A stretch of DNA of 54,509 nt from Candidatus Methanoperedens sp. (lineage in GTDB: Archaea > Halobacteriota > Methanosarcinia > Methanosarcinales > Methanoperedenaceae), in NCBI GenBank assembly GCA_012026795.1, contig VEPM01000027.1, positions 1 through 54,509 of the forward strand, given 5' to 3'. Shown piece after piece: positions 551 to 26,735 of this stretch (its first letter is position 1; each line of letters opens with the position of its first letter). Both the position numbers and the translations under genes were made by a program. Under the pieces are notes generated by a model. That model was given only the letters and a program-made list of their open reading frames with translations, searched no databases and was not told where the DNA came from.

Positions 551-1558
551 ATGACAGCATTATATCTGACAGAACAGGGCTCAAAACTGAGAAAGACCTC
601 GCAGAGACTTGTTGTTGAGAAAGGCGGCACTACTTTACTTGAGGTTCCTGCAAGCGGGATAGACCGGGTACTGGTATTTGGTGCAGTGCAGCTCAGCACC
701 CAGGTTATCAGTTTCCTCCTTGACAGCAGGATCGATGTGAGTTTCCTTTCCATGGGCGGCAGGCTTAAAGGCAAGCTGATGCCGGTTGAATCGAAGAATG
801 TATTTTTAAGGTTAGCCCAGTATGACAGATATAAGGACGAAGAATTCAAACTATTGATCGCGAAAAGTATTATTGGGGCAAAAATGATTAACCAGCGCGC
901 TCTTATCCTGCGCTACCAGAGAAATCATCCTGAAGCGGATTTTTCACCTGAACTTAAGATCATTTCAAATTCCATTTCTTCAGTCCAGGAAAAGAATGAG
1001 AATAAGAATACCATTGCTGCCCTGATGGGTTTTGAAGGTGCAAGCAGCGCAGCTTATTTTCGGTGCTATTCCAGGATGCTGTCGGTAGATTTTGCATTCG
1101 AGAAAAGGACAAGACATCCGCCGTTGGATCCGACGAATGCTCTTTTAAGCCTGGGTTATGTGCTTATCGGGAATGAAATAGGGGCGCTGATAGAATCCGC
1201 GGGTTTTGATCCTTTCATAGGATTTGTACATGGTTTACGATATGGCAGGCAGTCTCTTCCTCTTGACCTTGTGGAGGAGTTCCGGCATCCTGTGGTGGAT
1301 GGGCTTGTCATGACCATGATCAACAATGGTAGCATAAAAAAAGATGATTTTAATAAACAAGATAACGGCGTTTATTTACTTGATAAGAAAGCTTTCAAAC
1401 GATTCCTGGGGTACTATGAAGAAAGAATGGAGAAACCCTTTCTGTACAGGGAACAGGACTCTCAAACAAGTTACCGCAAGCTTTTCCAGATCCAGGCTGA
1501 GAAAATCCAGAAGGCTGTTCTTAACAGGGAAGAATATCAGCCATTCCTGGTGAGATGA
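551..1558 (+). CDS. cas1: CRISPR-associated endonuclease/integrase Cas1
   Basis: At 335 residues this is a normal length for Cas1, the metal-dependent integrase that inserts new spacers at the leader end of the array together with Cas2. It has an N-terminal beta domain (about 1-80) and an alpha-helical catalytic domain. The expected active-site residues are visible: Glu162 in MGFEGASSAAYF, His227 in GFVHGLRYGR, and the acidic pair in DLVEEFR (239-245). There is no reverse transcriptase fusion and no fused Cas4 or Cas6. The stop TGA (1556-1558) is followed at once by the cas2 ATG in the same frame, so the two genes are translationally coupled. The array lies immediately downstream on the same strand, so this adaptation pair probably serves it. 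Confidence 0.95.
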   Translation: MTALYLTEQGSKLRKTSQRLVVEKGGTTLLEVPASGIDRVLVFGAVQLSTQVISFLLDSRIDVSFLSMGGRLKGKLMPVESKNVFLRLAQYDRYKDEEFKLLIAKSIIGAKMINQRALILRYQRNHPEADFSPELKIISNSISSVQEKNENKNTIAALMGFEGASSAAYFRCYSRMLSVDFAFEKRTRHPPLDPTNALLSLGYVLIGNEIGALIESAGFDPFIGFVHGLRYGRQSLPLDLVEEFRHPVVDGLVMTMINNGSIKKDDFNKQDNGVYLLDKKAFKRFLGYYEERMEKPFLYREQDSQTSYRKLFQIQAEKIQKAVLNREEYQPFLVR

Positions 1559-1834
1559 ATGGGATTTGTGGTGATATCATACGATATTTCCGATGACGGA
1601 ACGAGAACCAAAGTGGCAAACCTGCTATTAGATCATGGAACACGTGTGCAATACAGCGTATTTGAGTTTTTGATAGATGAGAACAGACTGGATGAGCTTA
1701 TTGAAAAATTGAAAGATTTTCCAGAATGTGGCGATAGCATAAGAATATATCATGTATGTGAAGGATGTCTGAAAAAAGCCATAATTCTAGGAAGAGGAGA
1801 ATTCGAAAAAGAAGTTAGTTTTCATATTGTTTAA
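1559..1834 (+). CDS. cas2: CRISPR-associated protein Cas2
   Basis: This is a 91-residue Cas2, the small dimeric ferredoxin-fold partner of Cas1 in spacer integration. The N-terminal strand VVISYDISDDGTRTKVANLL carries the conserved Asp after the first beta strand, followed by the typical helix and HGTRVQYSVFEF strand. Near the C-terminus, CEGCLKKAIILG holds a CxxC. It starts directly after the cas1 stop. No other cas gene follows before the array, so adaptation genes and effector genes lie on opposite sides of the array. Confidence 0.93.
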   Translation: MGFVVISYDISDDGTRTKVANLLLDHGTRVQYSVFEFLIDENRLDELIEKLKDFPECGDSIRIYHVCEGCLKKAIILGRGEFEKEVSFHIV

Positions 1835-2112
1835 GAAGTCTGTAAAAAAAGTAGATTTATTTAGAAAGTCATCATTTTTGGCGATTCCCTCCAGACCCCC
1901 GAAAACAGGGGTAGGCAATCGCCAGCAAGCAGAGGCTGAATTGGTTTATATAAATATGTGAAGATGCAGCTTTTTTCGTGAAAATATCGAGGCAATCGCC
2001 AAACATTATTTTTCCGAAATCGTTATATAATATAAGGAATCTTAAAAAGGTGCTAATTGCCGAATAAAGGCATTAGAATGCTTTTCAAGAAACCAGCATG
2101 CGGTGACATGGG
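1835..2112 (+). promoter_or_regulatory. CRISPR leader with two TATA boxes and structured repeats
   Basis: This AT-rich 278-bp region lies between cas2 and the first repeat and holds no gene. It contains a hairpin-capable inverted repeat, GGCGATT (1880-1886) and AATCGCC (1917-1923), with a CCCC/GGGG pair inside. The 10-mer GGCAATCGCC occurs twice, at 1914-1923 and 1991-2000. TATA-like boxes lie at about 1945-1957 and 2023-2034. The second would place a transcript start some 55-60 nt before the first repeat, giving a pre-crRNA that reads in the + direction. The position next to intact repeats, with the degenerate repeat at the far end, supports leader polarity. Confidence 0.7.
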
Positions 2113-3502
2113 GTGAGAAAAGAGATGACCCGGTTTAGGGGATTGAAACGGTGAAACACAAACCACTGAAAAAATGGAAGCCAGGTGAGAAAAGAGATGA
2201 CCCGGTTTAGGGGATTGAAACAATTGTACTTTGCACATTTTCATTCCTCTTTTTGTATTTGTGAGAAAAGAGATGACCCGGTTTAGGGGATTGAAACTGT
2301 GCTGTGGTTCCTCCGACATTCGGGAATGCAGAGTGAGAAAAGAGATGACCCGGTTTAGGGGATTGAAACTCCTGACCGCATCGGACGCATGTGTGCCGTG
2401 CCTGGGTGAGAAAAGAGATGACCCGGTTTAGGGGATTGAAACAGATTTCCCATATGTTTTTCTCCTTTCCTTTCTCCTGTAGTGAGAAAAGAGATGACCC
2501 GGTTTAGGGGATTGAAACCGTTTTTTTGAATGGGTATTTCCTGCTGCCTGGCATAGTGTGAGAAAAGAGATGACCCGGTTTAGGGGATTGAAACATCCAT
2601 TACTCCCTAGAATCAATCCTAGGATATTTCTGGTGAGAAAAGAGATGACCCGGTTTAGGGGATTGAAACAATATTCTTTTTCACAATTTCTGCAAAATCC
2701 TTAACGGCCTTTGGTGAGAAAAGAGATGACCCGGTTTAGGGGATTGAAACTTTTTCTTTTTTCTTCTCTTCTTATCTTCTTCTCTTTAGTGAGAAAAGAG
2801 ATGACCCGGTTTAGGGGATTGAAACATTGACTTAACGCCATTTCGAATACTCCGAACACAAAAGAAAGTGAGAAAAGAGATGACCCGGTTTAGGGGATTG
2901 AAACTTATTCTTTTCCTCTTCTCTTTCTCTTTTGCATCTTTCGGTGAGAAAAGAGATGACCCGGTTTAGGGGATTGAAACAACTTGAACAACAATGCTCA
3001 AACCTTTCTAATTTTACAGTGAGAAAAGAGATGACCCGGTTTAGGGGATTGAAACATTTGTCTAAACTCGGCAATACCAGAAAATATTACATTCATAGTG
3101 AGAAAAGAGATGACCCGGTTTAGGGGATTGAAACATTTATTGGTTTTATTGATATCACCACATCGATGTCGTGAGAAAAGAGATGACCCGGTTTAGGGGA
3201 TTGAAACATACGGTCATTTTCAATGGAATCATTGCAAGCACACGTGAGAAAAGAGATGACCCGGTTTAGGGGATTGAAACAGTGTCTTAAATTATAATAA
3301 TCCCTTTTTGTTATGTGAGAAAAGAGATGACCCGGTTTAGGGGATTGAAACTTTTTTTCCTTTCCCTTCATTTTTTCTTTTTTTTCTGTGAGAAAAGAGA
3401 TGACCCGGTTTAGGGGATTGAAACATCCACAACCATTGTGCTGTGCTCCTCATTACCACCCGATTGTTAGAAAAGAGATGAACCGGTTTAATGGATTTCA
3501 GG
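2113..3502 (+). CRISPR. CRISPR array: 18 intact 37-bp repeats, one decayed terminal repeat, 18 spacers
   Basis: The repeat begins GTGAGAAAAGAG and ends GGGGATTGAAAC; the ATTGAAAC end is typical of type I and III repeats processed by Cas6. Intact copies start at 2113, 2185, 2261, 2333, 2406, 2482, 2558, 2633, 2714, 2789, 2868, 2944, 3019, 3098, 3171, 3244, 3315 and 3388, and look identical by eye. A 19th copy at 3466-3502 has several substitutions (GTTAG start, AACCGG core, TTTCAGG end), which marks the leader-distal end. Spacers are 34-44 bp. Many are strikingly pyrimidine-rich on this strand, notably those at 2443, 2751, 2905 and 3352. Long ORFs on either strand here are translations of the repeat, not genes. 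Confidence 0.99.
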
Positions 3503-3578: not shown

Positions 3579-4391
3579 GTGAAAAAAGAAGAAGCTATAG
3601 AAGCCGTAGAAAAATTAGTAATTCCTTCAAAAAGGTTCATATGGGCTTTTTTAGCATGGATGTTCCTATCGTCAATTACGGCAAGTCTTTTTGCTAATGT
3701 TATGAGTAGATTTTCACTGGAATTTTGGGTTTTAATTATATTCGTTATCCTATTGATATCTTTATTTGTTTTCATAGCAAAATATCTGCAAAAAATGAAA
3801 GAAACAATTTCAGTGGAACGAAATCTATTGATAAGAAAATATAAGGGATTGATTGCTTTTGTAAGTGAACCTCCAAAGGACTCAATAAAAAATGATAAAA
3901 TGGAAGAAGATTGGTTTAATAATTGTAAAAATATAATTGATAATTTTGTTAATGAGGGGAAGGAGAATCCAGTTAAGCTTCAAAAAATTAGAGGGATTGG
4001 ATCGATATTCAAAGCAGTAAATCATCACCAAGAAGTATTGAAATATTGCTGGTTATTACATTCTAAGAATTCAGAAATTAATATAGATATTATCAACTAT
4101 TTCTTTAGTAGGGTATTAAATGATGCTATAAAACCAGATTTCAAGTTAATCCTGGATTCAAATGATCCAAAACATATCAATGAACTGATTGAGGGGATAT
4201 ATAGTAATCTGTCCTATGATATCAGCCCATCTGAAATTATTTCAGACATTACCGCAGGTAATAAACCTATGACAGCAGGAATGATAATATCATGTCTAAA
4301 TGGCAATAAGAAAATAGAATATATCGAACAAAGCGAAAAAGAGGAACTAATTGAAATCGATCTTTCTCCAAAAATAATTGTAAAGGTATAG
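3579..4391 (+). CDS. Two-transmembrane protein with a C-terminal CARF-like sensor domain (candidate type III CRISPR membrane effector)
   Basis: This 270-residue protein starts at GTG, preceded by GGTGGT (3567-3572). Two hydrophobic helices are visible, about 20-41 (FIWAFLAWMFLSSITASLF) and 46-68, joined by a very short loop, so it looks like a membrane hairpin with both termini on one side. After a charged linker (about 70-88), the soluble part resembles a CARF domain: a strand and loop GLIAFVSEPPKD (90-101), a second strand CWLLHSKNS (157-165), and the motif DITAGNKPMTAGMIISCL (223-240). The last matches the DxTGGTKpM-type signature of CARF proteins. CARF domains bind the cyclic oligoadenylates made by Cas10, and the Cas10 gene lies just downstream with an intact GGDD. 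By analogy with known transmembrane CARF effectors such as Cam1, I infer membrane disruption on activation. No nuclease motif is visible. The family assignment comes from motifs only. Confidence 0.72.
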   Translation: MKKEEAIEAVEKLVIPSKRFIWAFLAWMFLSSITASLFANVMSRFSLEFWVLIIFVILLISLFVFIAKYLQKMKETISVERNLLIRKYKGLIAFVSEPPKDSIKNDKMEEDWFNNCKNIIDNFVNEGKENPVKLQKIRGIGSIFKAVNHHQEVLKYCWLLHSKNSEINIDIINYFFSRVLNDAIKPDFKLILDSNDPKHINELIEGIYSNLSYDISPSEIISDITAGNKPMTAGMIISCLNGNKKIEYIEQSEKEELIEIDLSPKIIVKV

Positions 4392-4435: not shown

Positions 4436-4493
4436 TGGGTGATAGGATAATGAAAAAACAAAATTTTATTTGCATAAAAGGCTGGATGATAAA

Positions 4494-6041
4494 ATGAGCA
4501 TTACTTCTGTCCTACTGGAAGTAGCTTCCATTCAACAGTATGTATTTGGGAGTAATAAATTAAAAGAAAATCTTGGCGCATCATATCTTGTGGAGAATAT
4601 ATTCAAAGATAATTTGAAATCTGCTTTTGAAGAAGGTTCAATAAATATTGACTTTGATGACTGGCATGAGAAACCGGAAAAATTCCAGATATGCGATTCA
4701 AATGCAGAAGGCGAAATCGGTTATATAGGCGGTGGAAATGCACTTCTTTTTTTCAAAGAAAATTCAACTGCTAAAGAAATCGCAAGACTGTGGTCAAGAG
4801 ACCTTCTGTTAAAAACACCTGGATTAATCCCTTCAATTGCCATAAGAGATACAAATTGTTCTGCTATTACTGAAAATTTTAAGTCTGAAATGAATGAGCT
4901 TTTCAATAAATTAACTAATAACAAAAATCAAAATCAACCCCAAACGATGCTGCCAAGGCATGGAATAACTGCAGAATGCAGTCATACAGGTTTTTCTGCA
5001 GAATGCTTTAATAGTAATGATAGCACCTACATTTCTTCAGTTGCAAAATCCAAGATAATGAATGTTGAAAATGCGAAAAAAGAACATAAATTAAGATTTA
5101 AGCATATTTTAAAGGATAAATTTGAGTTTCCAGATGAACTTAATAATCTTGGGCAGAGAGAAGGCGATAACCATATTTCAATTGTCCATATAGATGGAAA
5201 CGGAATGGGAAAAAGATTTAGAGAATGCAATAATCTTAAAGAGTTGAGATGCTTTTCAAATGATGTACATAATGCCACTGAAAGATCATTTGGGAAATTA
5301 CTCGAAAAAATAGTGGAAATATATGACGATTATTACAATGATAATTTTAATTTGTCATATAATATGCTTCCTCTTAGACCTATAATCATCGGCGGAGATG
5401 ATATTACATTTGTATCGCATGGAAATTTGGGTATATATTTTGCAAAGATTTTCATGGAGGAATTTTCGAAACAACCAGTTTATGATAACACTAAACTTTC
5501 ATCTTGTGCAGGTATATCAATAACAAAGACAAAATATCCATTTTATAGAGGCTATGAACTTGCTGAAGATCTCTGTAATCATGCGAAAAAGAAAGCGCGA
5601 ATTGAAGAAGAAAAAAACACTTCTTGGATAGATTTTCATATAGCATATGGTGGATTTTCTGGGACATTGGATGAAATACGTAAAAAGAACTATAGTGCTT
5701 CGGAAGGATGCCTTTGTTTAAGGCCATACAGACTTGAAGTTGGGGATCATCGAAGTTTAGATGATTGTTTAAATGGGATACGGCAATTGAAAAAACAATG
5801 GCCTAAATCGAAATTATCTGAAATGAGGGAAATACTGGAGCAGGGAATCCCAAAATGTGAGATGTTTATAAAAGAGATGGAGTATAGGGGGAATTTTCTT
5901 CCAGAAGTAAAAGACCATCCTGAATGTAAGAAAAAAGGATGGGGGGAAGATAAGGGGACTAAGTTTACACCATATTTTGACATGCTTGAGTTGATGAAAT
6001 TCTATCCATTTGACCTTGATTTAGGGAGGATTGAAAAATGA
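4494..6041 (+). CDS. cas10: Cas10, type III large subunit without an HD nuclease domain, GGDD intact
   Basis: I prefer the ATG at 4494 (515 residues). An in-frame TTG at 4470 would add eight residues but has no Shine-Dalgarno. The protein opens directly in the first palm region (SIQQYVFGSNKLKENLGASY), so there is no N-terminal HD nuclease; this is characteristic of subtype III-D. The first palm has a GGGN sequence. The second, cyclase-competent palm has VHIDGNGMG and an intact GGDD (residues 300-303 from this start), so it should convert ATP to cyclic oligoadenylate when the complex binds target RNA. The C-terminal third is helical. It overlaps the following cas7 by ATGA. The intact GGDD fits with the CARF gene upstream. 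DNA cleavage by Cas10 is not expected. Confidence 0.92.
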   Translation: MSITSVLLEVASIQQYVFGSNKLKENLGASYLVENIFKDNLKSAFEEGSINIDFDDWHEKPEKFQICDSNAEGEIGYIGGGNALLFFKENSTAKEIARLWSRDLLLKTPGLIPSIAIRDTNCSAITENFKSEMNELFNKLTNNKNQNQPQTMLPRHGITAECSHTGFSAECFNSNDSTYISSVAKSKIMNVENAKKEHKLRFKHILKDKFEFPDELNNLGQREGDNHISIVHIDGNGMGKRFRECNNLKELRCFSNDVHNATERSFGKLLEKIVEIYDDYYNDNFNLSYNMLPLRPIIIGGDDITFVSHGNLGIYFAKIFMEEFSKQPVYDNTKLSSCAGISITKTKYPFYRGYELAEDLCNHAKKKARIEEEKNTSWIDFHIAYGGFSGTLDEIRKKNYSASEGCLCLRPYRLEVGDHRSLDDCLNGIRQLKKQWPKSKLSEMREILEQGIPKCEMFIKEMEYRGNFLPEVKDHPECKKKGWGEDKGTKFTPYFDMLELMKFYPFDLDLGRIEK

Positions 6042-6694
6042 ATTTAATTTTTGAACTTAAACTTCTTTCAGATACTTTAATCGGTTCAGGAGAAGGTTGG
6101 GGTGCAAACATAGATAGTGACATAGTTTTTGATGATATCGGATTACCTTATATTCCAGCCAAAAGAGTAAAAGGTTGTCTAAAAGAGTCTGCAATCGAAA
6201 TTGTTGAGATGTTTGAAAACTCAGGGATAAAATTCGCAACAAACGGTGATATCGAAATGCTATTTGGTAAACCTGGCCAAATGCGTTCAAGCATGTTTTC
6301 ATTTCCGAATTGTTATTTATCCGATTATGAATCAAATAGAAAATGGCTTGAATGGTTGAAAACAAAATATCAAGAATTAATCACAAAGGAAATTATATTG
6401 GGTACTTTTACAATAACAAGACAACAAACAGCTATTGATAATAATGGGATTGCAAAAGTTCATTCATTAAGAACAAAAAGAGTATTGAAAAAAGGCAGTA
6501 ATTTTTCTGGAAAAATCGAATGTAATGGGATAGAAGAACATTTACTGTGCTTGCTTTCCCTCGCTGTAAGTAATTTGAGATATATGGGCACTAACAGGAA
6601 CAGGGGTTTTGGATGCATCAGTTGCAACCTTTTTGATGAAAATAATATATCATTAAATAAAAAATATATAAATCATATATCAAAGGTGATATAA
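6038..6694 (+). CDS. cas7: Cas7 (Csm3-like) backbone and RNA-cleaving subunit
   Basis: This is a 218-residue RAMP protein of normal single-Cas7 length. Typical features are the opening strand FELKLLSDTLIGSGEGWGA, the loop NIDSDIVFDD with Asp26 at the position of the Csm3 catalytic aspartate, YIPAKRVKGCLKE (38-50), and the C-terminal glycine-rich loop YMGTNRNRGFGCI. It should line the crRNA and cut bound RNA. Its start overlaps the cas10 stop. Its own TAA (6692-6694) is followed with no gap and in the same frame by the ATG of the next gene, so the two form one open frame broken by a single stop. In III-Dv systems the equivalent Cas7, Cas5 and Cas11 are one polypeptide. Confidence 0.88.
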   Translation: MNLIFELKLLSDTLIGSGEGWGANIDSDIVFDDIGLPYIPAKRVKGCLKESAIEIVEMFENSGIKFATNGDIEMLFGKPGQMRSSMFSFPNCYLSDYESNRKWLEWLKTKYQELITKEIILGTFTITRQQTAIDNNGIAKVHSLRTKRVLKKGSNFSGKIECNGIEEHLLCLLSLAVSNLRYMGTNRNRGFGCISCNLFDENNISLNKKYINHISKVI

Positions 6695-8269
6695 ATGCAT
6701 CAAATGCAATATACTATTAGAACCTTATCACCGGTTCTTTTAACATCGATATCCGGGGACACAAACATAGTGTCCACTTTGGATTATATTCCTGGATCGG
6801 TAATTCGGGGGATATTTGCCCAAAAATATATCGAAAAAAAAGATTTAAAGTTTGAAGCCCATAAAGACGAACTTTTCTATAATTGCTTTCTTGGTTCCAG
6901 ACTATCATTTACAAATGCCTATTTGAGCAAAAGTAAAGATAAAAATATAATTTATTATTATCCAACGCCTCTCTCAATACAATCAGAAAAAAGAGATGAA
7001 AATAAAATTTACGATTTGATCAAAAAAGAAAACAGGGATGAACAAACCAAATATGTGGGTAAGTATTGTGCGCTAAGAGGGAATAGCATCGATCTATTAC
7101 ATGCTTCAAAATCAATTAACTTTCATAATACAAGAAGTAATCGAATAAAAGGATGCAGTGATGATGGATCAATATACAATTATGAGTCGCTTGACCCACA
7201 GCAAGAATTTTCCGGGAGGATAATCGGGGAAAAAGAAGTACTTGAGGCGCTATTCCGATCATTTGGAAAATGCATGGACATCAATATTGGCAGATCAAAA
7301 AATATCCAATATGGTAAGGCGAAATTCACATTCATTTCAGATAAACCTGAAGAATTTTCATCCGAAGTGAATACCTTCAAATCTGATAATATCGATGATG
7401 CTACTTTTACCGTGACGCTTTTGTCATCTGCAATAATATATAATCAATTCGGTTTTTCCTCAGCTTCTCTTACTGATTTCAAGGTATATCTGGCAGAATA
7501 TCTTGCGATAGATCCTGAAAATATTAAAATAGAAAAAGTATTTAAAAAAGCTGAAACCAACGAAAATTTTATTTCAATTTGGCAAATTAAAAGACCAAGT
7601 GAAACCGCTATCAAAGCAGGTTCCTGTTTTAAAATAGAAATAAAGGGAATTAATAATAAAATAAAAGAATTATTGATCGAATTGCAGAAAACAGGAATTG
7701 GTGAGCGTACAAACGAAGGCTTTGGTCGCTTCGCATTAAATTTACAAAATCTGCATATACAGGGAGATTTAAAAAATAACAAAAAAAATGTAGAGGAAAA
7801 AGAACAGGCATCCGAGAAACCCCCAGGAAAAATCCCTGAAATTGCTAAATATATAATCAAGGATGCAGCAATCAGATCATATATTAAATATACTGAAAAT
7901 AAGGCATTAGAAGATTGTAAAGGATTTTGTGATAACTTGAAGAACTTACCTACTAATTCATTAATCGGAAAATTGGAGATGTCCCTCAATGATTCAAAGA
8001 ATTCACAGGATTTTAGTGCAATCTTAGACAAATTTCCAGAACTTACACAAAAAAAATTGAGAATTTGCAGAAATAAGGATAAAGACCTATTTGAATTTAT
8101 AAAAGCCAACGAGATTCCAATTGATAAGAATAAGCATTTATCAGAATTCTGCAAACTGATCGATTTTGTTCCTGAAGTAGATGAGGAATTCAAAAAGAAA
8201 AATCATTGGCATTATTGGCATACTTTCCTAAGAAGCATGCGTAAAGAAAAAAAGAAAGGAGGTAATTGA
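6695..8269 (+). CDS. csx10: Cas5-like (Csx10) protein with a C-terminal Cas11-like helical domain
   Basis: This is a 524-residue protein. Residues 1-355 look like a RAMP/Cas5-type fold: IRTLSPVLLTS, YIPGSVIRGIFAQKYI (31-46), a glycine-rich INIGRSKNIQYGKAKF (197-212), and GIGERTNEGFGRFALN (334-349). This matches Csx10, the Cas5 of subtype III-D that caps the 5' tag end of the crRNA. A charged, proline-containing linker (about 358-383) leads to an all-helical tail (about 384-524) rich in K, L and E, of the size and character of Cas11 small subunits. That part is inference, since Cas11 sequences are poorly conserved. No separate small-subunit gene is visible in the operon, which supports it. It begins immediately after the cas7 stop, in frame. 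Confidence 0.75.
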   Translation: MHQMQYTIRTLSPVLLTSISGDTNIVSTLDYIPGSVIRGIFAQKYIEKKDLKFEAHKDELFYNCFLGSRLSFTNAYLSKSKDKNIIYYYPTPLSIQSEKRDENKIYDLIKKENRDEQTKYVGKYCALRGNSIDLLHASKSINFHNTRSNRIKGCSDDGSIYNYESLDPQQEFSGRIIGEKEVLEALFRSFGKCMDINIGRSKNIQYGKAKFTFISDKPEEFSSEVNTFKSDNIDDATFTVTLLSSAIIYNQFGFSSASLTDFKVYLAEYLAIDPENIKIEKVFKKAETNENFISIWQIKRPSETAIKAGSCFKIEIKGINNKIKELLIELQKTGIGERTNEGFGRFALNLQNLHIQGDLKNNKKNVEEKEQASEKPPGKIPEIAKYIIKDAAIRSYIKYTENKALEDCKGFCDNLKNLPTNSLIGKLEMSLNDSKNSQDFSAILDKFPELTQKKLRICRNKDKDLFEFIKANEIPIDKNKHLSEFCKLIDFVPEVDEEFKKKNHWHYWHTFLRSMRKEKKKGGN

Positions 8270-8270
8270 T

Positions 8271-9665
8271 TTGAATAATTTATCCTTGATTGGAAAAATT
8301 ATCATTAGGGGGAAATTGTATCTCGAATCTCCATTGATTATTGGAAGTGGAATTAATGAATTCATCGATATAGAAGTCCTGAAAGATGAAAATGGTATGC
8401 CCTTTATTCCTGCCACTTCTCTCATAGGTGTATTAAAGGATTACTTTAAAAATAATATTTCTGAAAATATTGGAGATGATTCTGATTATTTTTGGGGAAT
8501 GTCTGAAAAAATAAACTCCGTTACTCAAAAATCAATACAGAGTTCTTTTATTTGTCATGACCTCTACTCAACTGAGGGAAAAATAAACATTCGAGATGGT
8601 GTATGTATAAATCCAATAAACCAGACTGCAAAGGATAAGGGAAAGTACGATTTCGAAATAGTAGATAAGGGAGCAGTATTTGATCTATTCTGGGAAGTCA
8701 CTTTAAGAGAAATTTATAATAAAGATATTTTCAGGCGAATAATTGCAACTATAATAGAACCTTTAATGTCATCTAAGATTGCGATCGGCGCCAAAACTAA
8801 CAGCGGTTTTGGAAAAGTTGCATTAAAGAATATTGAGGTAATAGAGTTTGATTTTTCCAAGAAAGATGATGTTTATAGATGGTTAAAAAAAGATTTATCT
8901 CATGGTATTTCCTATTTAGATGCAAAACAATATATCAGTTATTCTAAAAAGATTGATGTTTTTAGCATAGAAGCTAAATTTGCATTAGTGAATTCAATTA
9001 TTATAAGAGCGTATTCTGAAAAACCTGATTTGCCTGATGCTGTAAACATTACATCGAATGGAGAATTTGTGCTTCCAGGCACTTCATTAAAAGGCGCCAT
9101 ACGCAATCGTGCCTTAAAAATCCTTAAAACCGTTAAAAACGATGGAGCTGAACAAAAAATTAACCAATTGTTTGGCATTGCAGGTGAAAATGAGGGAAAA
9201 AAGAAGATCAAAAGCCGTGTCAAGGTTGAAGAGAGAGTAATAAGAAATACTTTGCCAGAGCTTCAAAACCGAATAAAGATAGATAGGTTTACTGGTGGGA
9301 CAATAAAAACCGCTCTTTTCAATAGCATGCCTTTGTGGAGTGGAAATGAACTGAATGAATCAGTAATTGTAAATATCAGTATCCGAAAATATAAAAATTG
9401 GGAGGCGGGACTTATGCTTCAGGTTCTAAAGGATTTGTGGTGTGAAGATCTCGCAATAGGTGGAGAAAAAAATGTAGGCAGGGGAATTTTGAAAGGAATT
9501 TCAGCCTTAATCAGGTGGCAAAATAAGAATCAACAAGAGAGAGAACTAGAAATAAAAGCTGCAGGAAAAGGCATCACTTTTTTTATGAAAAAATCTGATG
9601 AAACAGAACAGGCAGTGAAAGAATTGAATGAGTTTGCTAAAAGCATACAAGGAGTAATGGCATGA
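8271..9665 (+). CDS. Cas7-2x: two fused Cas7 domains
   Basis: This 464-residue protein contains two consecutive RAMP units. The TTG start at 8271 is set by GGAGG at 8258-8262. Domain 1 (about 8-190) has GKLYLESPLIIGSG, FIDIEVLKDENGMPFIP with Asp33 in the catalytic-loop position, and the glycine loop IGAKTNSGFGKV (172-183). Domain 2 (about 230-415) has Asp256 in DLPDAVNI, then EFVLPGTSLKGAIRNRA and IGGEKNVGRGILKG (396-409). Each domain should supply one backbone position and one potential RNA cut. Double Cas7 proteins of this kind are known from III-Dv complexes and are related to the ancestors of Cas7-11. The start overlaps nothing upstream, and the 3' end overlaps the next gene by ATGA. Confidence 0.85.
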   Translation: MNNLSLIGKIIIRGKLYLESPLIIGSGINEFIDIEVLKDENGMPFIPATSLIGVLKDYFKNNISENIGDDSDYFWGMSEKINSVTQKSIQSSFICHDLYSTEGKINIRDGVCINPINQTAKDKGKYDFEIVDKGAVFDLFWEVTLREIYNKDIFRRIIATIIEPLMSSKIAIGAKTNSGFGKVALKNIEVIEFDFSKKDDVYRWLKKDLSHGISYLDAKQYISYSKKIDVFSIEAKFALVNSIIIRAYSEKPDLPDAVNITSNGEFVLPGTSLKGAIRNRALKILKTVKNDGAEQKINQLFGIAGENEGKKKIKSRVKVEERVIRNTLPELQNRIKIDRFTGGTIKTALFNSMPLWSGNELNESVIVNISIRKYKNWEAGLMLQVLKDLWCEDLAIGGEKNVGRGILKGISALIRWQNKNQQERELEIKAAGKGITFFMKKSDETEQAVKELNEFAKSIQGVMA

Positions 9666-10258
9666 AAGATATAGGTAACGGGTTACAATTTAGACAAATT
9701 AAATCGAGTATATCAAAGTTCAATATCATTGAAATTCAAGATTTCAATTCCATAAAATCGTTAGTCAAAGATTATTTTGGGCAAAAAGGCTTATGTGTTT
9801 TTTATCTTGATTATAAGGTGCTGATAGGTAAATATGATGGAGAAGACTTCAAATTTTATGAAAATAAAGAATTTGAACCGCAATTTATTCAAAAAATGAG
9901 GTTATTCAACACTGATAGGGAATTATTCGTCTGGAAAGAAAATAGAAATGGATTCAGAGGAAGATTAAGGATCGATGAAACGGGAAATAAAGTAGATGTA
10001 GTAGATGCATATCAGGTTTTGTGGGGAACAAAACTGGAATTTAGAGGGGAATTCACTGAAATATCAGAGGAAAGAGGAACGAAATTAGTACTTCCAGTAA
10101 AACATCTCAAAGTTGACAACTCTGAAAACAGAGCATTTATTCTAACTCGCAATTACATTTCATATGAAACTTACGACTCCACATACGAGCAAGCCGGATA
10201 TGAAGATTGTAGATTCGTGTCAATTACGGATAAAAATAGAAACCCATGTGGGGTGTGA
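9662..10258 (+). CDS. csx19: Csx19-like type III-D accessory subunit (TIGR03984-like)
   Basis: This is a 198-residue protein. The central part MRLFNTDRELFVWKENRNGF followed by RGRLRIDE (about 79-107) matches my recollection of the Csx19/TIGR03984 family, which is restricted to type III-D loci and is a structural subunit in the III-Dv complex. Further on are VDAYQVLWGT and a basic, aromatic C-terminal region. It has no nuclease motif, membrane segment or CARF motif. It overlaps the cas7-2x gene by 4 bp and the reading frame of the next gene by up to 13 bp, so it belongs to the effector operon. The position between cas7-2x and the large Cas7 supports the call; the sequence match is less certain than for its neighbours. 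Confidence 0.65.
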   Translation: MKDIGNGLQFRQIKSSISKFNIIEIQDFNSIKSLVKDYFGQKGLCVFYLDYKVLIGKYDGEDFKFYENKEFEPQFIQKMRLFNTDRELFVWKENRNGFRGRLRIDETGNKVDVVDAYQVLWGTKLEFRGEFTEISEERGTKLVLPVKHLKVDNSENRAFILTRNYISYETYDSTYEQAGYEDCRFVSITDKNRNPCGV

Positions 10259-10260
10259 AC

Positions 10261-12123
10261 ATGGTTTATAGGGATAAAAGAAAAAAAAATCTCAATAAAA
10301 ATCAGAATTTCCTAAGAAATAATTTTAGACCACTTCAAAAGAAACCTGATACAGATAGTGGTTCAAAATCAAGAAATGCTGCCGAAAATCAAATAAAACC
10401 CATTACTCATTTTGCACATGCTCCTTATAATTTCGTACCATTAAATACTTCAATTGTTGAGGGAGATCCGAAATTGCCTCAGGATAAATATTATTCAGAT
10501 AGATTATCAGGACATATTGATTGCGATCTGGAAACTTTAACTCCAATTTACATACGAGACAGTTTGACTGAAGATGAAGTAAGAAAAAAGATCGAAGCAA
10601 AAGATAAATCAGATTTTTTTTCACCAGCAGATATTGTGCGCATACCAGGAAGCAGTATTAGAGGAATGGTACGAAGCCTTGTGGAGATTATAAGCTGGAG
10701 CAGATTTGGATTTTTTGAAGATAAGAACCTATACTATCGAAGTTTTGCTGACATAAGCAGTTTGCGTGATGAGTATAAAAATAATATGAATCCTAAAAAC
10801 GAAGAAACTGGAAGATCAGATTATAGAATGTCTGCAGGATATCTTGTTAGGGAAGGATTTGAATATGCTATTTATCCCGCTGAAGGAAAGAAATTTGAAA
10901 GAATAAGCAAAAATGATGCCATGGAATCTGTCCGAAAAATTGGGCAGGTTTATTCTGAATTTAATTTTTATAGATTACCAGATGGCAGATGTATAATCGT
11001 CTCTGGTTCAATGCCAAGAAAAAAAGATTGGATTATATTTAAAATTGATAAGAAACCGGAAAAGAAAATTGTAATCTCAGAAATAGATATCGAAAGTTAT
11101 GAAATTGATGAGAATAGATCTGACAGAGTTCCAAACCTTCTAAAACTATGCAAACAAGATCGAGAAGTTCCATGTTTTTATGTTGAATGGATGGATAAGA
11201 ATGGAGAACCAAGAGTTTCTTTTGGTCATACAGGGTTATTCCGCATTGCATACAGAAAAACTATCAGTGATCATTTACCACCCTCGCTTGTTGAAGATAA
11301 TCATACAAAGAAAATTGATTTTGCTCATGCCATCTTCGGAAATACTGCGGAGGATAGCAAAGATTCTTTTTCAGGACGAGTCTTCTTTGAGGATGCCAAG
11401 CTTGTTGATCCAAAAATAAATCCTTTTCTTGAAGAGAAGATTCCCAAAATACTATTGGGGCCAAAGCCTACGACTTTTCAACATTATCTAGAACAGGATT
11501 CAACTAATCCGAAAAAGCTTAAACATTACAATTCAGAAACATTAATTCGAGGCAACAAGTTCTACTGGCATAAATCAGGTAAGAATTGGGAAGAAGACAA
11601 ACAAAATTCGAATAAAAATATTGAGACCAAGGTCAAACCTGTTAAACCTAACATACATTTTAGATTCCGCATAAGGTATGAAAATTTGACCGAAAATGAA
11701 TTGGGAGCATTACTTTTTGCACTAAGACTTCCTGATGGGTGTGCACACAAGATCGGTATGGGTAAGCCTATTGGATTAGGTTCGGTGAAGATCAATCCTG
11801 CACTATTTATAGTCGAAAGAGATAAAAGGTACTCGACTCTTTTTGACAATTCTGGATGGGTACTGGCAGAATCTCCAAAAAGTCATGAAGATATTAAAAG
11901 GATAGCATCGACTTTTGAGAAATATATCCTTAATAATATCGATAAATATAGAGGAAATGCGTCCTCTCTCTGGGATACTTATAGACTTAAACAGCTAAAA
12001 TTATTGCTTGATGTTGAAACTGGCAAGAATCTTGAAGTAAATGGTAAGATTGGATATATGAATCTCAAAGATTTCAGGTATAGAAATATTCTGCCGAATC
12101 CAGAAGAATGTGTGAAATCTTGA
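10261..12123 (+). CDS. Large Cas7 with insertion (TIGR03986-like RAMP), III-D effector subunit
   Basis: This is a 620-residue protein from the ATG at 10261, which is preceded by GGGGTG (10250-10255). An ATG at 10246 would add five residues inside csx19. The Lys/Asn-rich N-terminus leads to HAPYNFVPLNTSIVE, a phrase I associate with TIGR03986 RAMPs of type III-D loci. A Cas7-type first half follows (DCDLETLTPIYIRD, IVRIPGSSIRGMVRSLVEII), then a long insertion (about residues 170-390), GRVFFEDAKL, and the C-terminal glycine loop HKIGMGKPIGLGSVKINP. In III-Dv the corresponding Cas7-insertion protein sits at the 3' side of the backbone. It is the last intact gene of the operon; decayed genes follow. 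Confidence 0.82.
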   Translation: MVYRDKRKKNLNKNQNFLRNNFRPLQKKPDTDSGSKSRNAAENQIKPITHFAHAPYNFVPLNTSIVEGDPKLPQDKYYSDRLSGHIDCDLETLTPIYIRDSLTEDEVRKKIEAKDKSDFFSPADIVRIPGSSIRGMVRSLVEIISWSRFGFFEDKNLYYRSFADISSLRDEYKNNMNPKNEETGRSDYRMSAGYLVREGFEYAIYPAEGKKFERISKNDAMESVRKIGQVYSEFNFYRLPDGRCIIVSGSMPRKKDWIIFKIDKKPEKKIVISEIDIESYEIDENRSDRVPNLLKLCKQDREVPCFYVEWMDKNGEPRVSFGHTGLFRIAYRKTISDHLPPSLVEDNHTKKIDFAHAIFGNTAEDSKDSFSGRVFFEDAKLVDPKINPFLEEKIPKILLGPKPTTFQHYLEQDSTNPKKLKHYNSETLIRGNKFYWHKSGKNWEEDKQNSNKNIETKVKPVKPNIHFRFRIRYENLTENELGALLFALRLPDGCAHKIGMGKPIGLGSVKINPALFIVERDKRYSTLFDNSGWVLAESPKSHEDIKRIASTFEKYILNNIDKYRGNASSLWDTYRLKQLKLLLDVETGKNLEVNGKIGYMNLKDFRYRNILPNPEECVKS

Positions 12124-14704: not shown

Positions 14705-15306
14705 TGGGCTACCCTGGAAAAAACACAAAATCATATAACACGCCCAAGCATCCCTGGCAGGCAACAAGGATCGAACCGGAGGTTGAACTTGTAAAAAGAT
14801 ATGGCCTCAGGAATAAGAGGGAAGTCTGGAAAGCCCACAGCGAACTTAAGAAATACAGGGAACTCGCCAGGAAATTGCTTGCGGAAAGTATAAAAGGAGA
14901 ACTTAAAGGGCATGTGAAGACAGATGGAGACAATATTCTCAATCGTTTGAAAAGGTATGGTCTATTAAAGAATGATTCGGTATTTGATGATATCTTATCG
15001 CTTGATGTGAATAATTTCCTTGAGAGGAGACTTCAGACCCAGGTGCACAAGCAGGGACTTGCCAATACACCTAAACAGGCAAGGCAATTTATTGTACATG
15101 GACACATTTCCGTTGCAGGAAGAAAGATCACCGTACCTGGTTATCTTGTTCCGGCTGACGAAGAATTATCACTGGGTTATTATACAGGTTCTGAATTATC
15201 GAAGGAATCCCATCCGGCAAGACCCGGACAGGTAGTAAAGAATATTGTCCAGGAAACAACAAAACCGGAAGAAACAAAAAATGTCCCCGTGAGGGAGGCT
15301 AAATAA
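14704..15306 (+). CDS. rps4: 30S ribosomal protein uS4 (S4)
   Basis: This is a 200-residue archaeal uS4. It has the conserved opening [27 protein letters not shown], an S4 RNA-binding domain around [16 protein letters not shown] and [18 protein letters not shown] (about 108-150), and a variable C-terminal tail. It binds 16S rRNA early in small-subunit assembly. The ATG at 14704 shares its A with the uS13 stop codon, and its own stop overlaps the uS11 start. This coupling is usual in archaeal ribosomal operons. Confidence 0.96.
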
Positions 15307-15686
15307 TGGCAACTGAGAAATGGGCTGTAGCTCATATATATTCCTCGTTCAACAATACCCTGATAACAATTACTGATTTAACAGGGGCTGAAACGATAGC
15401 AAAAACAAGCGGCGGTATGGTTACAAAGGCTGCAAGGGAAGAGAGTTCCCCTTACACTGCCATGCAGATGGCTAACCAGATTGCTGATAAGATAAGAGAC
15501 AAAGGAATAATGGGTATTCACATAAAAGTAAGAGCGCCAGGCGGCAACATGCAGAGAAGTCCCGGAGGAGGAGCGCAGGCTGCCATCAGGGCATTTGCAC
15601 GTGCCGGAATAAAAATCGGCAGGATCGAGGATGTTACCCCGATACCTCATGACGGCACAAAACCTAAGAAGGGCAGGCGTGTGTAA
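15306..15686 (+). CDS. rps11: 30S ribosomal protein uS11 (S11)
   Basis: This is a 126-residue uS11 of the platform of the small subunit. The sequence starts [20 protein letters not shown] and includes the conserved KASREESSPY-like segment ([18 protein letters not shown]), [10 protein letters not shown] and the terminal [20 protein letters not shown]. It overlaps uS4 by one base and is followed without a gap by rpoD. No unusual residues were noticed. Confidence 0.97.
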
Positions 15687-16472
15687 ATGGATATTGACAT
15701 AATCGAATTATCAGAGCGCAAGGCAAGGTTCGTTCTATCCGATGTTTCTGCATCATTTGCAAATGCTTTAAGAAGAAGCATCCTTGCAGAAGTTCCGGTA
15801 ATGGCTATTGATGATGTTAATATCTATGAGAATACTTCTGTATTGTTTGATGAACAGTTTGCATTAAGATTAGGATTGATCCCGTTAAAAACAGATAACA
15901 AATCCTATGTGCTTCCTGAAGAGTGCAACTGCAAAGGCGCAGGTTGCCCTTTATGTAAATTATCATTGACCCTTAGTGCAGAAGGCCCGAAAGTCGTATA
16001 TTCAGGTGACCTGGTTTCTGCTGATCCGCAGGTAGAGCCATCTGATAAAACCATACCAATTGTGGAACTCAAAGATAAGCACAAAATCGTAGTAGAAGCA
16101 ATAGCGAGGCTTGGAACAGGCAGGAAACACAGTAAATGGCAGGCCGGAGTCGCGGCAGGATTTAAAAATATGCCCGTTGTGACAATCGGAGAATGCGATT
16201 ATTGTGGAAACTGCGTTGAAGTCTGTCCGCGCAGTATCCTGAAAATGGACGGTGACAAAGTCAAGGTCGTTAATGTAATTGAATGTTCCATGTGCATGTT
16301 ATGCGAAGAAAAATGCGACATGGATTCAATTGAAGTAACAAGTAAACCCGACTCCTTTGTTATGACATTTGAAACAACAGGCGCCCTGACCGCTAAAGAA
16401 ATCGCTCTTGAAGCGGCAGGTAGTATTAAGAAGAGAGCCGAACAATTAAGTGAAATAATTGATGCCCTCTGA
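15687..16472 (+). CDS. rpo3: RNA polymerase subunit D (Rpo3) with two Fe-S cluster motifs
   Basis: This is a 261-residue alpha-like subunit that dimerises with subunit L to seed archaeal RNA polymerase assembly. The dimerisation domain is recognisable in FANALRRSILAEVPVMAIDD and FALRLGLIPLKT. A ferredoxin-like insertion carries two full cysteine sets: C170, C173, C176, C180 (followed by Pro) and C200, C203, C206, C210. Both could hold a 4Fe-4S cluster, as described for Methanosarcina RpoD; many archaea have lost one or both. A further CxC...CxxC group occurs near residues 77-89 (CNCKGAGCPLC). It is last in the operon and followed by a strong hairpin. Confidence 0.95.
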   Translation: MDIDIIELSERKARFVLSDVSASFANALRRSILAEVPVMAIDDVNIYENTSVLFDEQFALRLGLIPLKTDNKSYVLPEECNCKGAGCPLCKLSLTLSAEGPKVVYSGDLVSADPQVEPSDKTIPIVELKDKHKIVVEAIARLGTGRKHSKWQAGVAAGFKNMPVVTIGECDYCGNCVEVCPRSILKMDGDKVKVVNVIECSMCMLCEEKCDMDSIEVTSKPDSFVMTFETTGALTAKEIALEAAGSIKKRAEQLSEIIDAL

Positions 16473-19200: not shown

Positions 19201-19422
19201 GATTGGGCGATCCGCCATTTATTTATAGTGCCACAGCTTAATCACAATTTAGATAGGATTCTGCTCAAAAATCTTGTGTGTGAGTGGTATCTCTACGGGA
19301 TATGGTGAAAAAATGGTTTTGAAAAACTTTTGCGGAGGGAGGGCCCTCAGGATCGCGGTCGGGATAACGGCTCTGCCAATTATTAAAAACAATAATCAAT
19401 ATAAATAATGGAGTTAAATATT

Positions 19423-22400
19423 ATGAAAAAACATATTTCAATAAAAACATTCTTAGCAATTTTTTTGCTTACTTTGATGACTATTGCAGTCGCAACCCCA
19501 ATAGTAACAGCTGTTTCCAATGGCAAGATTGCTTTTGTGAGCAACAGGGATGGTAATGATGAGATATATTCAATGAATGCGGACGGTACCGGACAGACAA
19601 GGCTGACCAATAACACCGCCAGTGATGTGAATCCTGCCTGGTCATCTGATGGAACCAGGATTGCATTCGTAAGTAATAGGGATGGAAACAATGAGATTTA
19701 TGTAATGAATGCAGATGGCAGCAACCAGCAAAGACTGACTTCCAGCACTTCTAGCGACATAAACCCGACATGGTCACCAGATGGAACAAGGATTGCTTTT
19801 GCAACCAACAGAGATACTGGCTCCTGGGTCGGATATGAGGTATATGTCATGAATGCAAATGGCAGCAATCAGCAAAGGCTAACCAATAACACTGTTGACG
19901 ATGTGAACCCAACATGGTCACCAGACGGAACCAGAATTGCATTTATAACTAATAAGGACGGCAACTATGAGATTTATGTAATGAATGCAGATGGCAGCAA
20001 TCCGCAAAGGAGGACAAATAACACTGCTTCTGATGGGAACCCGGCATGGTCACCTGATGGAACAAAAATTGCATTTGTTAGAAATTCCGGAACTTGGGTT
20101 GCTGATATCTATATCACGAATGCATATACATGCCAGGAATGTACGGGTACAGCCCCGACAGACCTGTCCCAATCACCCAGTGCTGATGCAGATCCAGCTT
20201 TCTCACCAGATGGAACAAAGATTGCATTTGCAACTTCTAGGGATGGCAACTATGAGATTTATATAATGAATCCTGACGGCAGTGAGCAGATAAGGGTGAC
20301 TAATAATACTGCTTCGGATCGGGAGCTGAGCTGGCAGCCCATTTCAGCTACCCTGTTGCCCGGCATCTCAATAAACGATATAACGTTGACAGAACCCAAT
20401 TCTGGTACAAGAAACTTTGTCTTTACGGTAACAAGATCAGGTAATACAACAGGTGTCTCATCTGTAAACTTTTCAACAGCAAATGGAACTGCAATTGCAC
20501 CGTCAGACTATACATCAAACTCCGGAACAATAACCTTTGCAGCCGGAGAAACAACAAAGAATGTTACTATAATGGTGAATAGTGACACTACAATAGAGCC
20601 AGACGAAACGTTCTTTGTGAATTTATCAAACTGTATCGGATGCAGCATTACTGACAACCATGGAGTAGGTACAATCCTTAATGGGCAACTACTTGAACTC
20701 TTCAACGTATATATTTCACCAGATATTAATACAATTGGTCTTGGAAGCAGCAAAAAATCCACAATTACAATAAACAACTATGGTTCTGCAGCAAGCAATT
20801 ACAACATAAGTATTTCTGGACTAAATGACACCTGGTATACTCTCGAAAGAACGAATGTTAATCTTAACCCTGGAGAAATCAGTAATGTTAACATCAATAT
20901 AACATTGCCTTCAACTTGCTCCATAAGTGAAACATCAAGAAATTTCAGCGCATATGTTTCTTCCGTTGTCACAAATGCAACTGAGTCAGATCAGGCAGAG
21001 CTCAGAATTGACTCCGGTCATTCAATCAATAACCTTTTGCCAGTGAATCGAAGTAGACTGAGTTCCACGGATATAGCAATAACCTGGGATACTTATGGTA
21101 ATGCAACCACTGAAGTTTATTACAGGGCGCAGAACGAGGCGAATTATACCGCAATTACAGGGGCAAATGGTCGACAGCACTTTGTAAGGTTATTTAATCT
21201 TTCCAGAAATACATGGTATGCGTATTATGTCAGGAGCAATACCTCATGTGGTTCATCAGAGAGTGCAATTAATTATTTCTTCATAGATAATGGAATATCA
21301 TTTACTCAAAAAATATATTCTTTCAATATAAACAGGGACTATGACCAGCGAGTACAGGTTACGGTGAAGAACACAGATTCTAAACCGCACAGGTTACTAA
21401 TGCATGTTACCAATCCCTATGATGACTTGATAGGCAACTTCGTAGGGAGCGGCTCTGAGGATCAAATAATAACTTTATCCCCTGGCCAGTCAATGGCTGA
21501 AACACTTGCATTGCATGCTCAGGACGCTTTGCTCGGGAGCTATAAGCTCGGCTTGAATCTCACCAACATAGACGATAATACTACAGAATACATACACGAC
21601 TTTGCCATTGCAAACATCAATGTTTATCATCCTTATATCAACTTCTCTATCGATGAGATGAGCAGCGACAATATTACTTTAAAAAAGAAGTTTAGAATAA
21701 CAAATTACGGGGATACGATAACTGACTTGAAAGTAAGCATAGACGATGAGCATAAGAATTCAGTTTTCTTTGAACCATCCATAAATCACGGTTACCTGCA
21801 AAAAGGAGGCATGATGGAGTTTGAGGCTGTTCCTGCATTAGTTCCTGGTACAACAGGTTTCACTGCCACTATTTCCGTAAGCGGAGCAGGCGAAGAGGTG
21901 AACAAAACCACCAATTTTAACACACCTGAAGGCGAGAGGATATTTGTTGGGATAAGTCCGCCATTAAATATAAAATTCCTGGAACCGTTTGATGCTGATG
22001 GAATCAATTACACAAATCCGCCAGAAGAAAGCGTTCTGGCACCTTTTGTGGTTGGCAATACAGTTTCATTATTGGGCAAGGTAGGTGTTTTAGTTGAACA
22101 GTTTAATAGGCCTGTTAGCGGTGCAAATGTGTCATTGATTTTGAGATATGATTACCCGGGTAATAGCAATGTTACAACAATTTATGGGACGAGTAATCTA
22201 TTTGGGGTGGCTTCATTTACCATTTTTGGCCCACCTGGAAATTACAGCTATTCTGCCGAGTTGACTGGTATTGGCAAAACTACAGAGACAAGAAACTTCA
22301 GTGTAAATGAGATTCCATTCAAGTCTTTCCAGCCATTTTCTGTGATATGGACCAATGCTTCAGAAGCTAACATAAGCTATGAAATAAACAACTCCATGAA

Positions 22401-25400: not shown

Positions 25401-26691
25401 CACCGTTAACGACGGTTCACATCCGTGGCTTATTCCCGCGACACTGGCACCGGGAACGGACTATAAAGTGAGGATCACAAGCACAACCAATGCGGCTTAC
25501 AACGACACAAGCGATGCCAATTTCACTATCCCTGTACCATCCATCACTATCGTAACTCCAGATGGTGGAGAGAACTGGACGCGAGGTACAACCAAGATCA
25601 TTAATTGGAACTCTACTGAGAGTCCCGGAACGTATGTTAAGATAGAACTGCTGAAAGCAGGAACCCTCAACAGGGTGGTCATAGCAAGCACCTTGAATGA
25701 CGGTTCACATCCATGGGTTATTCCCGCGACACTCGTCCCGGGAAAAGACTATAAAGTAAAGATTACGAGCATAATCAACATCTCAAATAGCGACACCAGC
25801 GATAATAACTTCACCATTCCGACCCCATCCATCAATGTCGTCTCACCAAATGGCGCAGAGAACTGGACACGGGGAACAACTAAAATCATAACCTGGAACT
25901 CTACTGAGAGTCCCGGATCGTATGTGAAGATAGAACTGCTCAGACCAGGAAAGCCGAACCAGTTGATCATATCAGCAACCCTGAATGACGGCTCACACCC
26001 CTGGTTAATTCCAGCAGCACAGGCGCCGGGGAGCGATTATAAAGTGAAGATAACTAGCGCCATTAACGCTTCAAACAATGACACGAGCGATGATAATTTC
26101 ATGATCCCCGCCCCATCATTCAAGGTGGTTTCTCCCAACGGAGGGGAGAACTGGATACGAGGAAGCACTCAAATAATAAAATGGAATTCTACTGAGAGTC
26201 CCGGAACGTATGTGAAGATAGAACTCCTTAAAGGAGGAGTTTTGAACAGGGTGATCATAGCGAGCACCATCAATGACGGCTCACATCCATGGATAATTCC
26301 AGCAACACAAACTCCAGGAGATGACTATAAAGTGAGGATCACAAGCACAGCCAATGTTTCGAACACGGACACAAGCGATGCCAACTTCACTATCCCGGTA
26401 CCTTCCATCACTGTTGTAACTCCAAATGGCGCAGAAAACTGGACACGTGGAACAACTAGGATCATCAACTGGAGTTCTACTGAAAGTCCTGGATCGTATG
26501 TGAAGATAGAACTGCTGAAATCAGGAGTCCTTAACAGGGTGATCATAGCAAGCACCATCAATGACGGCTCACATCCATGGCTAATCCCGGTTACACAGGC
26601 TACAGGAAGTGATTACAGAGTGAAGATAACAAGCACCATTAACATATTAAATAATGATGCAGGCAATAATGACTTCACGATTGGGAGTTGA
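19423..26691 (+). CDS. Giant secreted repeat protein: beta-propeller, Calx-beta, CARDB, Fn3 and seven KNH-like repeats
   Basis: The ATG at 19423 has GGAG nine bases upstream; an earlier in-frame ATG at 19408 is less likely. The 2,422-residue product begins with a signal peptide ([20 protein letters not shown]). Next come about six WD40-like/TolB-type blades of about 45 residues (NxDGSNxQRLTNN, [13 protein letters not shown]; about 30-310), a Calx-beta domain (about 310-405), several Ig-like/NEW3 regions, an unusual helical, Lys-rich segment near residues 1245-1390, a CARDB domain (about 1535-1630) and an Fn3-like domain (about 1645-1735). Seven repeats of about 95 residues with PNGxENWTRG and [10 protein letters not shown] follow (Kre9/KNH-like). 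NxS/T sequons are dense, fitting an S-layer-associated glycoprotein. No transmembrane or PGF-CTERM anchor is seen. Confidence 0.88.
24655..26690 (+). repeat. Seven tandem coding repeats of about 287 bp
   Basis: Units start near 24658, 24967, 25252, 25547, 25834, 26119 and 26407. Later copies share long near-identical DNA blocks, such as GTATGTGAAGATAGAACT and ATGACGGCTCACATCC, so the array has recently expanded or is being homogenised. Confidence 0.85.
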
Positions 26692-26735
26692 AGGCATTGT
26701 GGCCTTTTACTTCCCCATATCACCAAAAAAAATTA

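What the first reader, a model, noticed from the sequence alone, without database searches (positions are those of the whole stretch)
6038..8269. cas7 and cas5-cas11 form one reading frame broken by a single TAA
The Cas7 stop codon (6692-6694) is followed immediately, in the same frame, by the ATG of the Cas5-Cas11-like gene. In III-Dv complexes the same three domains, in the same order, are one polypeptide (Cas7-5-11). This locus looks like the state just before fusion, or just after re-splitting, and could show how the fused type III complexes, and by extension Cas7-11, arose. Stop-codon read-through could also yield some fused protein.
Basis: partly seen in the sequence, partly recalled or inferred. 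Interest (0 to 1): 0.82.

Follow-up and report, generated by a model that had tools for sequence, protein, structure and literature searches.

The report
Ordinary split III-D CRISPR gene pair
In this methane-cycling archaeon two neighbouring CRISPR effector genes, cas7 and cas5-cas11, abut in the same reading frame with one stop codon between them; this is one of several ordinary junctions seen in a widespread split form of the system, not a fusion caught in the act.

Summary
cas7 (6038-6694) ends in TAA and the cas5-cas11 ATG (6695) follows at once in the same frame. The second protein is a real Cas5(Csx10)-Cas11 of the kind solved in the Synechocystis III-Dv complex (sequence, AlphaFold2 and Foldseek), in an operon with III-Dv gene order.

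The evolutionary reading is not supported. The split form is widespread: 102 of 117 scorable unique loci found here. The window's three nearest relatives are split with a 2-nt gap, out of frame. In-frame single-stop junctions occur in 10 of 28 non-overlapping split junctions (1/3 expected by chance, p=0.84), needing 8 changes on the tree. The same window has three more 0-nt in-frame gene pairs: cas1|cas2, rps11|rpoD and 38625|38626. A GGTGA Shine-Dalgarno motif lies 5 nt before the ATG, so separate initiation explains the arrangement. Nothing points to read-through.

By-product: the Cas7-Cas5-Cas11 fusion is not one clade (AU p=3.6e-10), so it changed state several times. Published work derives III-E from III-D2, a variant with three fused Cas7 domains, rather than from this arrangement.

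Verdict: a split III-D operon, a new member of a known kind.

The parts
6038..6694 (+). cas7 (first Cas7 backbone subunit; catalytic Asp26 conserved)
   Evidence: PADLOC PDLC02113 Cas7_IIId 6.6e-43 and PDLC02091 7.6e-54; matches residues 8-161 of 8s9t_A Cas7-Cas5-Cas11; D26 aligns with Synechocystis D26, 87 of 89 rows D
6692..6694 (+). cas7 stop codon TAA, immediately followed in frame by ATG 6695
6685..6690 (+). GGTGAT, Shine-Dalgarno-like motif; GGTGA ends 5 nt before ATG 6695
   Evidence: read from the sequence; SD-like motif upstream of cas5-11 in 97 of 102 split loci
6695..8269 (+). cas5-cas11 (Csx10 + small-subunit fusion, 524 aa)
   Evidence: PDLC02090 over residues 1-521, E 1.2e-72; TIGR02674 Csx10 below cut-off, 94.5 bits; AF2 pLDDT 88.7; top Foldseek hits 8s9u/8s9t/8s9v/8s9x chain A
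7838..8260 (+). Cas11 domain: all-helical C-terminal domain, residues 382-522, after a low-confidence linker at about 362-381
   Evidence: AF2 secondary structure and pLDDT; hhalign of this domain alone to the Synechocystis Cas11 region, probability 83, E 8.4e-06 one-to-one
4470..6041 (+). cas10d (TTG start; GGDD intact)
   Evidence: PDLC02057 Cas10d 4.2e-130; D310/D311 align with Synechocystis D308/D309
8271..9665 (+). cas7-2x (two Cas7 domains; D33 and D256 conserved)
   Evidence: PDLC02111 4.5e-124; two RAMP stretches in Pfam; residues mapped
9662..10258 (+). csx19
   Evidence: TIGR03984 9.1e-33, above cut-off
10246..12123 (+). cas7-insertion
   Evidence: TIGR03986 7e-136 above cut-off; C-terminal part also matches III-E gRAMP NF041225 at 129 bits, below its cut-off; a 187-position Csm3 profile is spread over residues 95-515
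3579..4391 (+). CARF-TM ancillary effector, probable cyclic-oligoadenylate sensor in the membrane
   Evidence: PDLC01941 CARF8-CARF_TM 4e-61
2102..3502 (+). CRISPR array, 19 repeats of GTGAGAAAAGAGATGACCCGGTTTAGGGGATTGAAAC, the last one degenerate
551..1834 (+). cas1 (551-1558) and cas2 (1559-1834), themselves joined by a 0-nt in-frame stop|ATG junction
   Evidence: TIGR00287 and TIGR01573 above cut-off; junction

Best explanation
This is a complete type III-D operon of a Methanoperedens-like archaeon in which Cas7 and Cas5-Cas11 are two separate subunits from adjacent genes. Cas7 translation ends at TAA. The ribosome, or a new one, starts at the adjacent ATG using GGTGA, probably with translational coupling. 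The two proteins then join Cas10, Cas7-2x, Csx19 and Cas7-insertion around one crRNA, in the places the fused Cas7-Cas5-Cas11 takes in the Synechocystis III-Dv complex. The complex would cleave target RNA at three Cas7 aspartates and make cyclic oligoadenylate through the Cas10 GGDD, activating the CARF-TM protein. Shown here: gene content, order, domains, conserved catalytic residues, the junction, its chance frequency and the tree. Inferred: expression, complex assembly and activity. The in-frame abutment is one of several interchangeable junction types and carries no special evolutionary signal.
For: Domains. Catalytic residues. Same gene order, split, in a same-genus genome and other Methanosarcinales, in cyanobacterial plasmids and in 102 of 117 scorable unique loci (with L152 re-read as fused). 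Nearest relatives L013, L014 and L027 have a 2-nt gap, out of frame, with stops TAA, TAA and TGA. In-frame contiguous junctions: 10 of 28 non-overlapping, p=0.84, needing 8 changes among split rows. SD-like motif before cas5-11 in 97 of 102. Three more such junctions in the window. PADLOC (2023) already holds separate models for split (PDLC02090, PDLC02113) and fused (PDLC02091, PDLC02089) forms.
Against: The window pair is truly one stop codon from a fused frame, and a read-through product would have about 16 linker residues, just under the shortest natural fused linkers (17-21 residues). So fusion by a single stop loss is sterically conceivable. No expression data exist.
Confidence: 0.93

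Rival explanations
1. Evolutionary intermediate: the lineage is about to fuse, or has just re-split, and the in-frame TAA|ATG is the trace of that.
For: Literal one-stop break. Fused forms occur in the wider 37-row clade that holds the window. Parsimony in the 37-row tree is tied between all-gain and gain-plus-loss histories for that half (my reading), so an ancient re-split is possible.
Against: Sister species and the rest of the 4-row archaeal clade are split and out of frame. No leftover linker: 14 residues after the Cas7 profile end, within the usual range for split loci. The in-frame state recurs at the chance rate.
Confidence: 0.05
2. Programmed or leaky stop read-through makes some fused Cas7-Cas5-Cas11.
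For: One in-frame stop. A weak hairpin overlaps the SD-stop region.
Against: UAA followed by A; stop identity not conserved (TAA, TAA, TGA) and relatives out of frame, so selection cannot be keeping read-through there. Own SD and ATG. The hairpin is unremarkable (z -1.55).
Confidence: 0.02
3. Sequencing or assembly error: the gene is really fused and the TAA is an artefact.
For: No read coverage could be inspected.
Against: The ATG with an SD motif sits exactly where relatives start cas5-11 (MHQ.. in L013 and L027), and three relatives independently stop cas7 at the same place.
Confidence: 0.01

Closest known systems
Type III-Dv effector of Synechocystis sp. PCC 6803 (pSYSA; PDB 8s9t/u/v/x; PMC11026444)
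   Same: Same genes and order: cas10, cas7, cas5-cas11, cas7-2x, csx19, cas7-insertion. Same Cas5-Cas11 architecture. Conserved D26, D33, the second Cas7-2x Asp and GGDD.
   Different: Cas7 is a separate polypeptide. Cas11 Arg678 aligns with Glu428, and R706, R769 and R773 with Lys. Low identity, about 25%. CARF-TM effector; no cas6 found among the identified genes of the locus.
Split III-D operons of Methanosarcinales, anammox and other bacteria, and cyanobacteria (PADLOC PDLC02090 + PDLC02113 type)
   Same: Same split of Cas7 and Cas5-Cas11 and same order. Cas5-Cas11 is 55% identical to the same-genus locus.
   Different: Only the junction type: relatives have a 4-nt overlap (56 of 102), other overlaps, or small gaps; the window has 0 nt in frame.
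III-E gRAMP / Cas7-11
   Same: Homology of Cas7-insertion and Cas7-2x to parts of Cas7-11 (NF041225, 129 and 36 bits, below cut-off).
   Different: This locus keeps Cas10, Cas5 and Csx19 as separate genes. The literature derives III-E from III-D2 with a Cas7x3 (PMC8730458, PMC12669027).

Membership tests
Type III-D (csx10/csx19 signature) | Csx10-type Cas5 | tested here: met
   Cas5_IIId models PDLC02090 1.2e-72 and others; TIGR02674 hit 7.6e-27 but below its curated cut-off
Type III-D (csx10/csx19 signature) | Csx19 present | tested here: met
   TIGR03984 113 bits against cut-off 35
Type III-D (csx10/csx19 signature) | Cas10 of the III-D group with intact GGDD | tested here: met
   PDLC02057 Cas10d 4.2e-130; D310 and D311
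Type III-Dv (Synechocystis form) | Cas7-Cas5-Cas11 in one polypeptide | tested here: not met
   TAA at 6692-6694 separates Cas7 from Cas5-Cas11
Type III-Dv (Synechocystis form) | Cas7-2x double Cas7 | tested here: met
   two RAMP stretches, PDLC02111
Type III-Dv (Synechocystis form) | Cas7 with a large insertion | tested here: met
   TIGR03986 454.9 bits; Csm3 profile spread over residues 95-515
Type III-Dv (Synechocystis form) | Single-copy subunits around a fixed-length crRNA, three RNA cleavage sites | not testable with these tools
   needs biochemistry; the three catalytic aspartates are conserved
III-E Cas7-11 | Single effector of four Cas7 plus Cas11, without Cas10 or Cas5 | tested here: not met
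   separate genes, Cas10 and Cas5 present
Stop-codon read-through gene | Conserved in-frame stop with conserved stop identity or context | tested here: not met
   three nearest relatives are out of frame, stops TAA, TAA and TGA

The most novel reading that the evidence does not exclude
In-frame single-stop junctions, which arise in about a third of non-overlapping split loci, are the raw material for the repeated Cas7-Cas5-Cas11 fusions, so this locus is one substitution from a working fused subunit with a linker of about 16 residues.
Probability: 0.12. Interest if true: 0.4.

Novelty: new member of a known kind. Interest (0 to 1): 0.2.

Why it matters
It removes a tempting but unsupported transitional-form claim. 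The survey gives something more useful: the split form is the commoner form in this sample, in-frame abutment recurs at the chance rate, and the Cas7-Cas5-Cas11 fusion that marks III-Dv does not form one clade. Fusion alone is therefore a poor marker of a III-Dv lineage or of an intermediate toward Cas7-11.

Tried and rejected
Two viral-contig scans found no relatives. A first profile script timed out. The automatic start choice put the window's cas5-11 start at the second ATG (gap 9); it was corrected to ATG 6695 because relatives begin MHQ. L152 was first counted as split but has an assembly gap (N run) inside a fused gene, so it was rescored as fused. The AU test on all 118 rows did not finish and was done on 37 rows. 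A hairpin at the SD-stop region was judged unremarkable. A re-split sign in L135 (in-frame TAG, near the fused L140/L152) was looked for, but its Cas7 has no leftover linker (221-aa ORF, profile ends at 204).

Full report
WHAT IS THERE. The window holds a type III-D locus: cas1 551-1558, cas2 1559-1834, an array of 19 repeats, a CARF-TM gene, cas10, cas7, cas5-cas11, cas7-2x, csx19 and cas7-insertion. cas7 ends with TAA at 6692-6694 and the cas5-cas11 ATG is at 6695, same frame. A fused-family profile (PDLC02091) runs across both as one 744-codon frame with one TAA, E 5e-120.

THE DOMAINS ARE RIGHT. Cas7 and Cas5-Cas11 each match, in order, parts of the solved Synechocystis Cas7-Cas5-Cas11 (8s9t). 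PADLOC names them Cas7_IIId and Cas5_IIId. AlphaFold2 with 46 rows (pLDDT 88.7) shows a Cas5 part to about residue 361, a flexible linker, and an all-helical domain at 382-522. Foldseek ranks the four III-Dv chains first, and the helical domain alone aligns with the Synechocystis Cas11 (probability 83). Cas7 D26, Cas7-2x D33 and D256, Cas10 GGDD and R453 are conserved; the Cas11 arginines R678, R706, R769 and R773 are not (Glu or Lys here).

THE SPLIT IS THE COMMON STATE. A same-genus genome (L002/L013) has the split form with a 2-nt gap, out of frame. Other Methanosarcinales are split. On cyanobacterial plasmids Planktothrix, Nostoc ATCC 53789 and Sphaerospermopsis are split, while Synechocystis 6803 and Nostoc edaphicum are fused; Photobacterium is split. 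A genome scan found 275 relatives, 80 kept. With phylum samples this gave 118 unique loci: 102 split, 15 fused, one cut by its contig end. The sample leans toward window-like loci. In the Bacillota draw of 21 genomes with a match, about nine loci look fused.

THE IN-FRAME STOP IS CHANCE. Of 102 split junctions 56 overlap by 4 nt, 18 overlap otherwise, and 28 do not overlap; of these 28, 10 are in frame and contiguous against 9.3 expected (p=0.84). That count of 102 was made before L152 was rescored, and one split locus gave no usable start. Among split rows the contiguous state needs 8 changes. In the window itself cas1|cas2, rps11|rpoD and the pair at 38625|38626 have the same 0-nt in-frame junction, and nobody would call those near-fusions. 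An SD-like motif precedes cas5-11 in 97 of 102 loci; here GGTGA lies 5 nt before the ATG.

READ-THROUGH. The three nearest relatives end cas7 with TAA, TAA and TGA and restart out of frame, so read-through is not conserved. The local RNA fold is unremarkable.

TREE. In a 118-row tree of Cas7 plus Cas5-Cas11 the window sits in a fully supported 4-row archaeal clade, all split. Fused against split needs 6 changes, or 4 without long-branch rows. In a 37-row careful tree it needs 4 (5-95% range over bootstrap trees also 4); holding all fused rows in one clade is rejected (AU p=3.6e-10), and also without the Synechocystis type (p=0.0046). Counts of changes do not separate gain from loss. For the half that holds the window, all gains and a fused ancestor with losses cost the same, so an ancient re-split is not excluded; a recent one is. 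Caveats: the main tree is a quick search with several long branches, and the 37-row test used a plain LG model.

LINKER. A fused product here would have about 16 residues between the domains (14 after the Cas7 profile end, the stop position and the Cas5 start), just below the shortest natural linkers of 17-21 (range 17-48). One stop loss could therefore plausibly make a working fusion.

LITERATURE. III-Dv is described as an apparent intermediate with III-D1 gene order kept (PMC11026444). III-E is derived from III-D2 with three fused Cas7 domains (PMC8730458, PMC12669027). The present locus adds nothing specific to the origin of Cas7-11.

CONCLUSION. A well-kept split III-D operon, a new member of a known kind. 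The repeated fusion of Cas7 to Cas5-Cas11 is the one observation worth passing on.

Noticed in passing
L021, L023, L125, L046, L050, L051, L113, L134, L136-L140, L152, L154: Fused Cas7-Cas5-Cas11 does not form one clade (AU p=3.6e-10 on 37 rows), so the fusion arose or was lost several times across Cyanobacteria, Bacillota and Bacteroidota.
   Followed up: partly
window 3579-4391: CARF8-type membrane effector with a GTG start between the array and cas10, probably the cyclic-oligoadenylate-activated arm of this system.
   Followed up: no
G000:C56:5048-5413 (L158): No Cas6 was identified among the genes of the window's CRISPR locus; a Cas6 (PF10040, 81 bits) lies on another contig and may process crRNA in trans.
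   Followed up: partly
window 551-1834, 15306-16472, 37816-39201: Three other gene pairs with a stop codon immediately followed in frame by ATG: cas1|cas2 (TGA), rps11|rpoD (TAA) and an unidentified pair (TAA).
   Followed up: yes
L160 5861-8083 (G1471): Another one-stop in-frame cas7|cas5-11, with TAG, near the fused L140/L152 in the tree; the best natural place to look for a recent change of state.
   Followed up: partly
window 19408-26691: Very long ORF (2427 aa) with six 288-nt direct repeats at 24967-26706, probably a repetitive surface protein.
   Followed up: no
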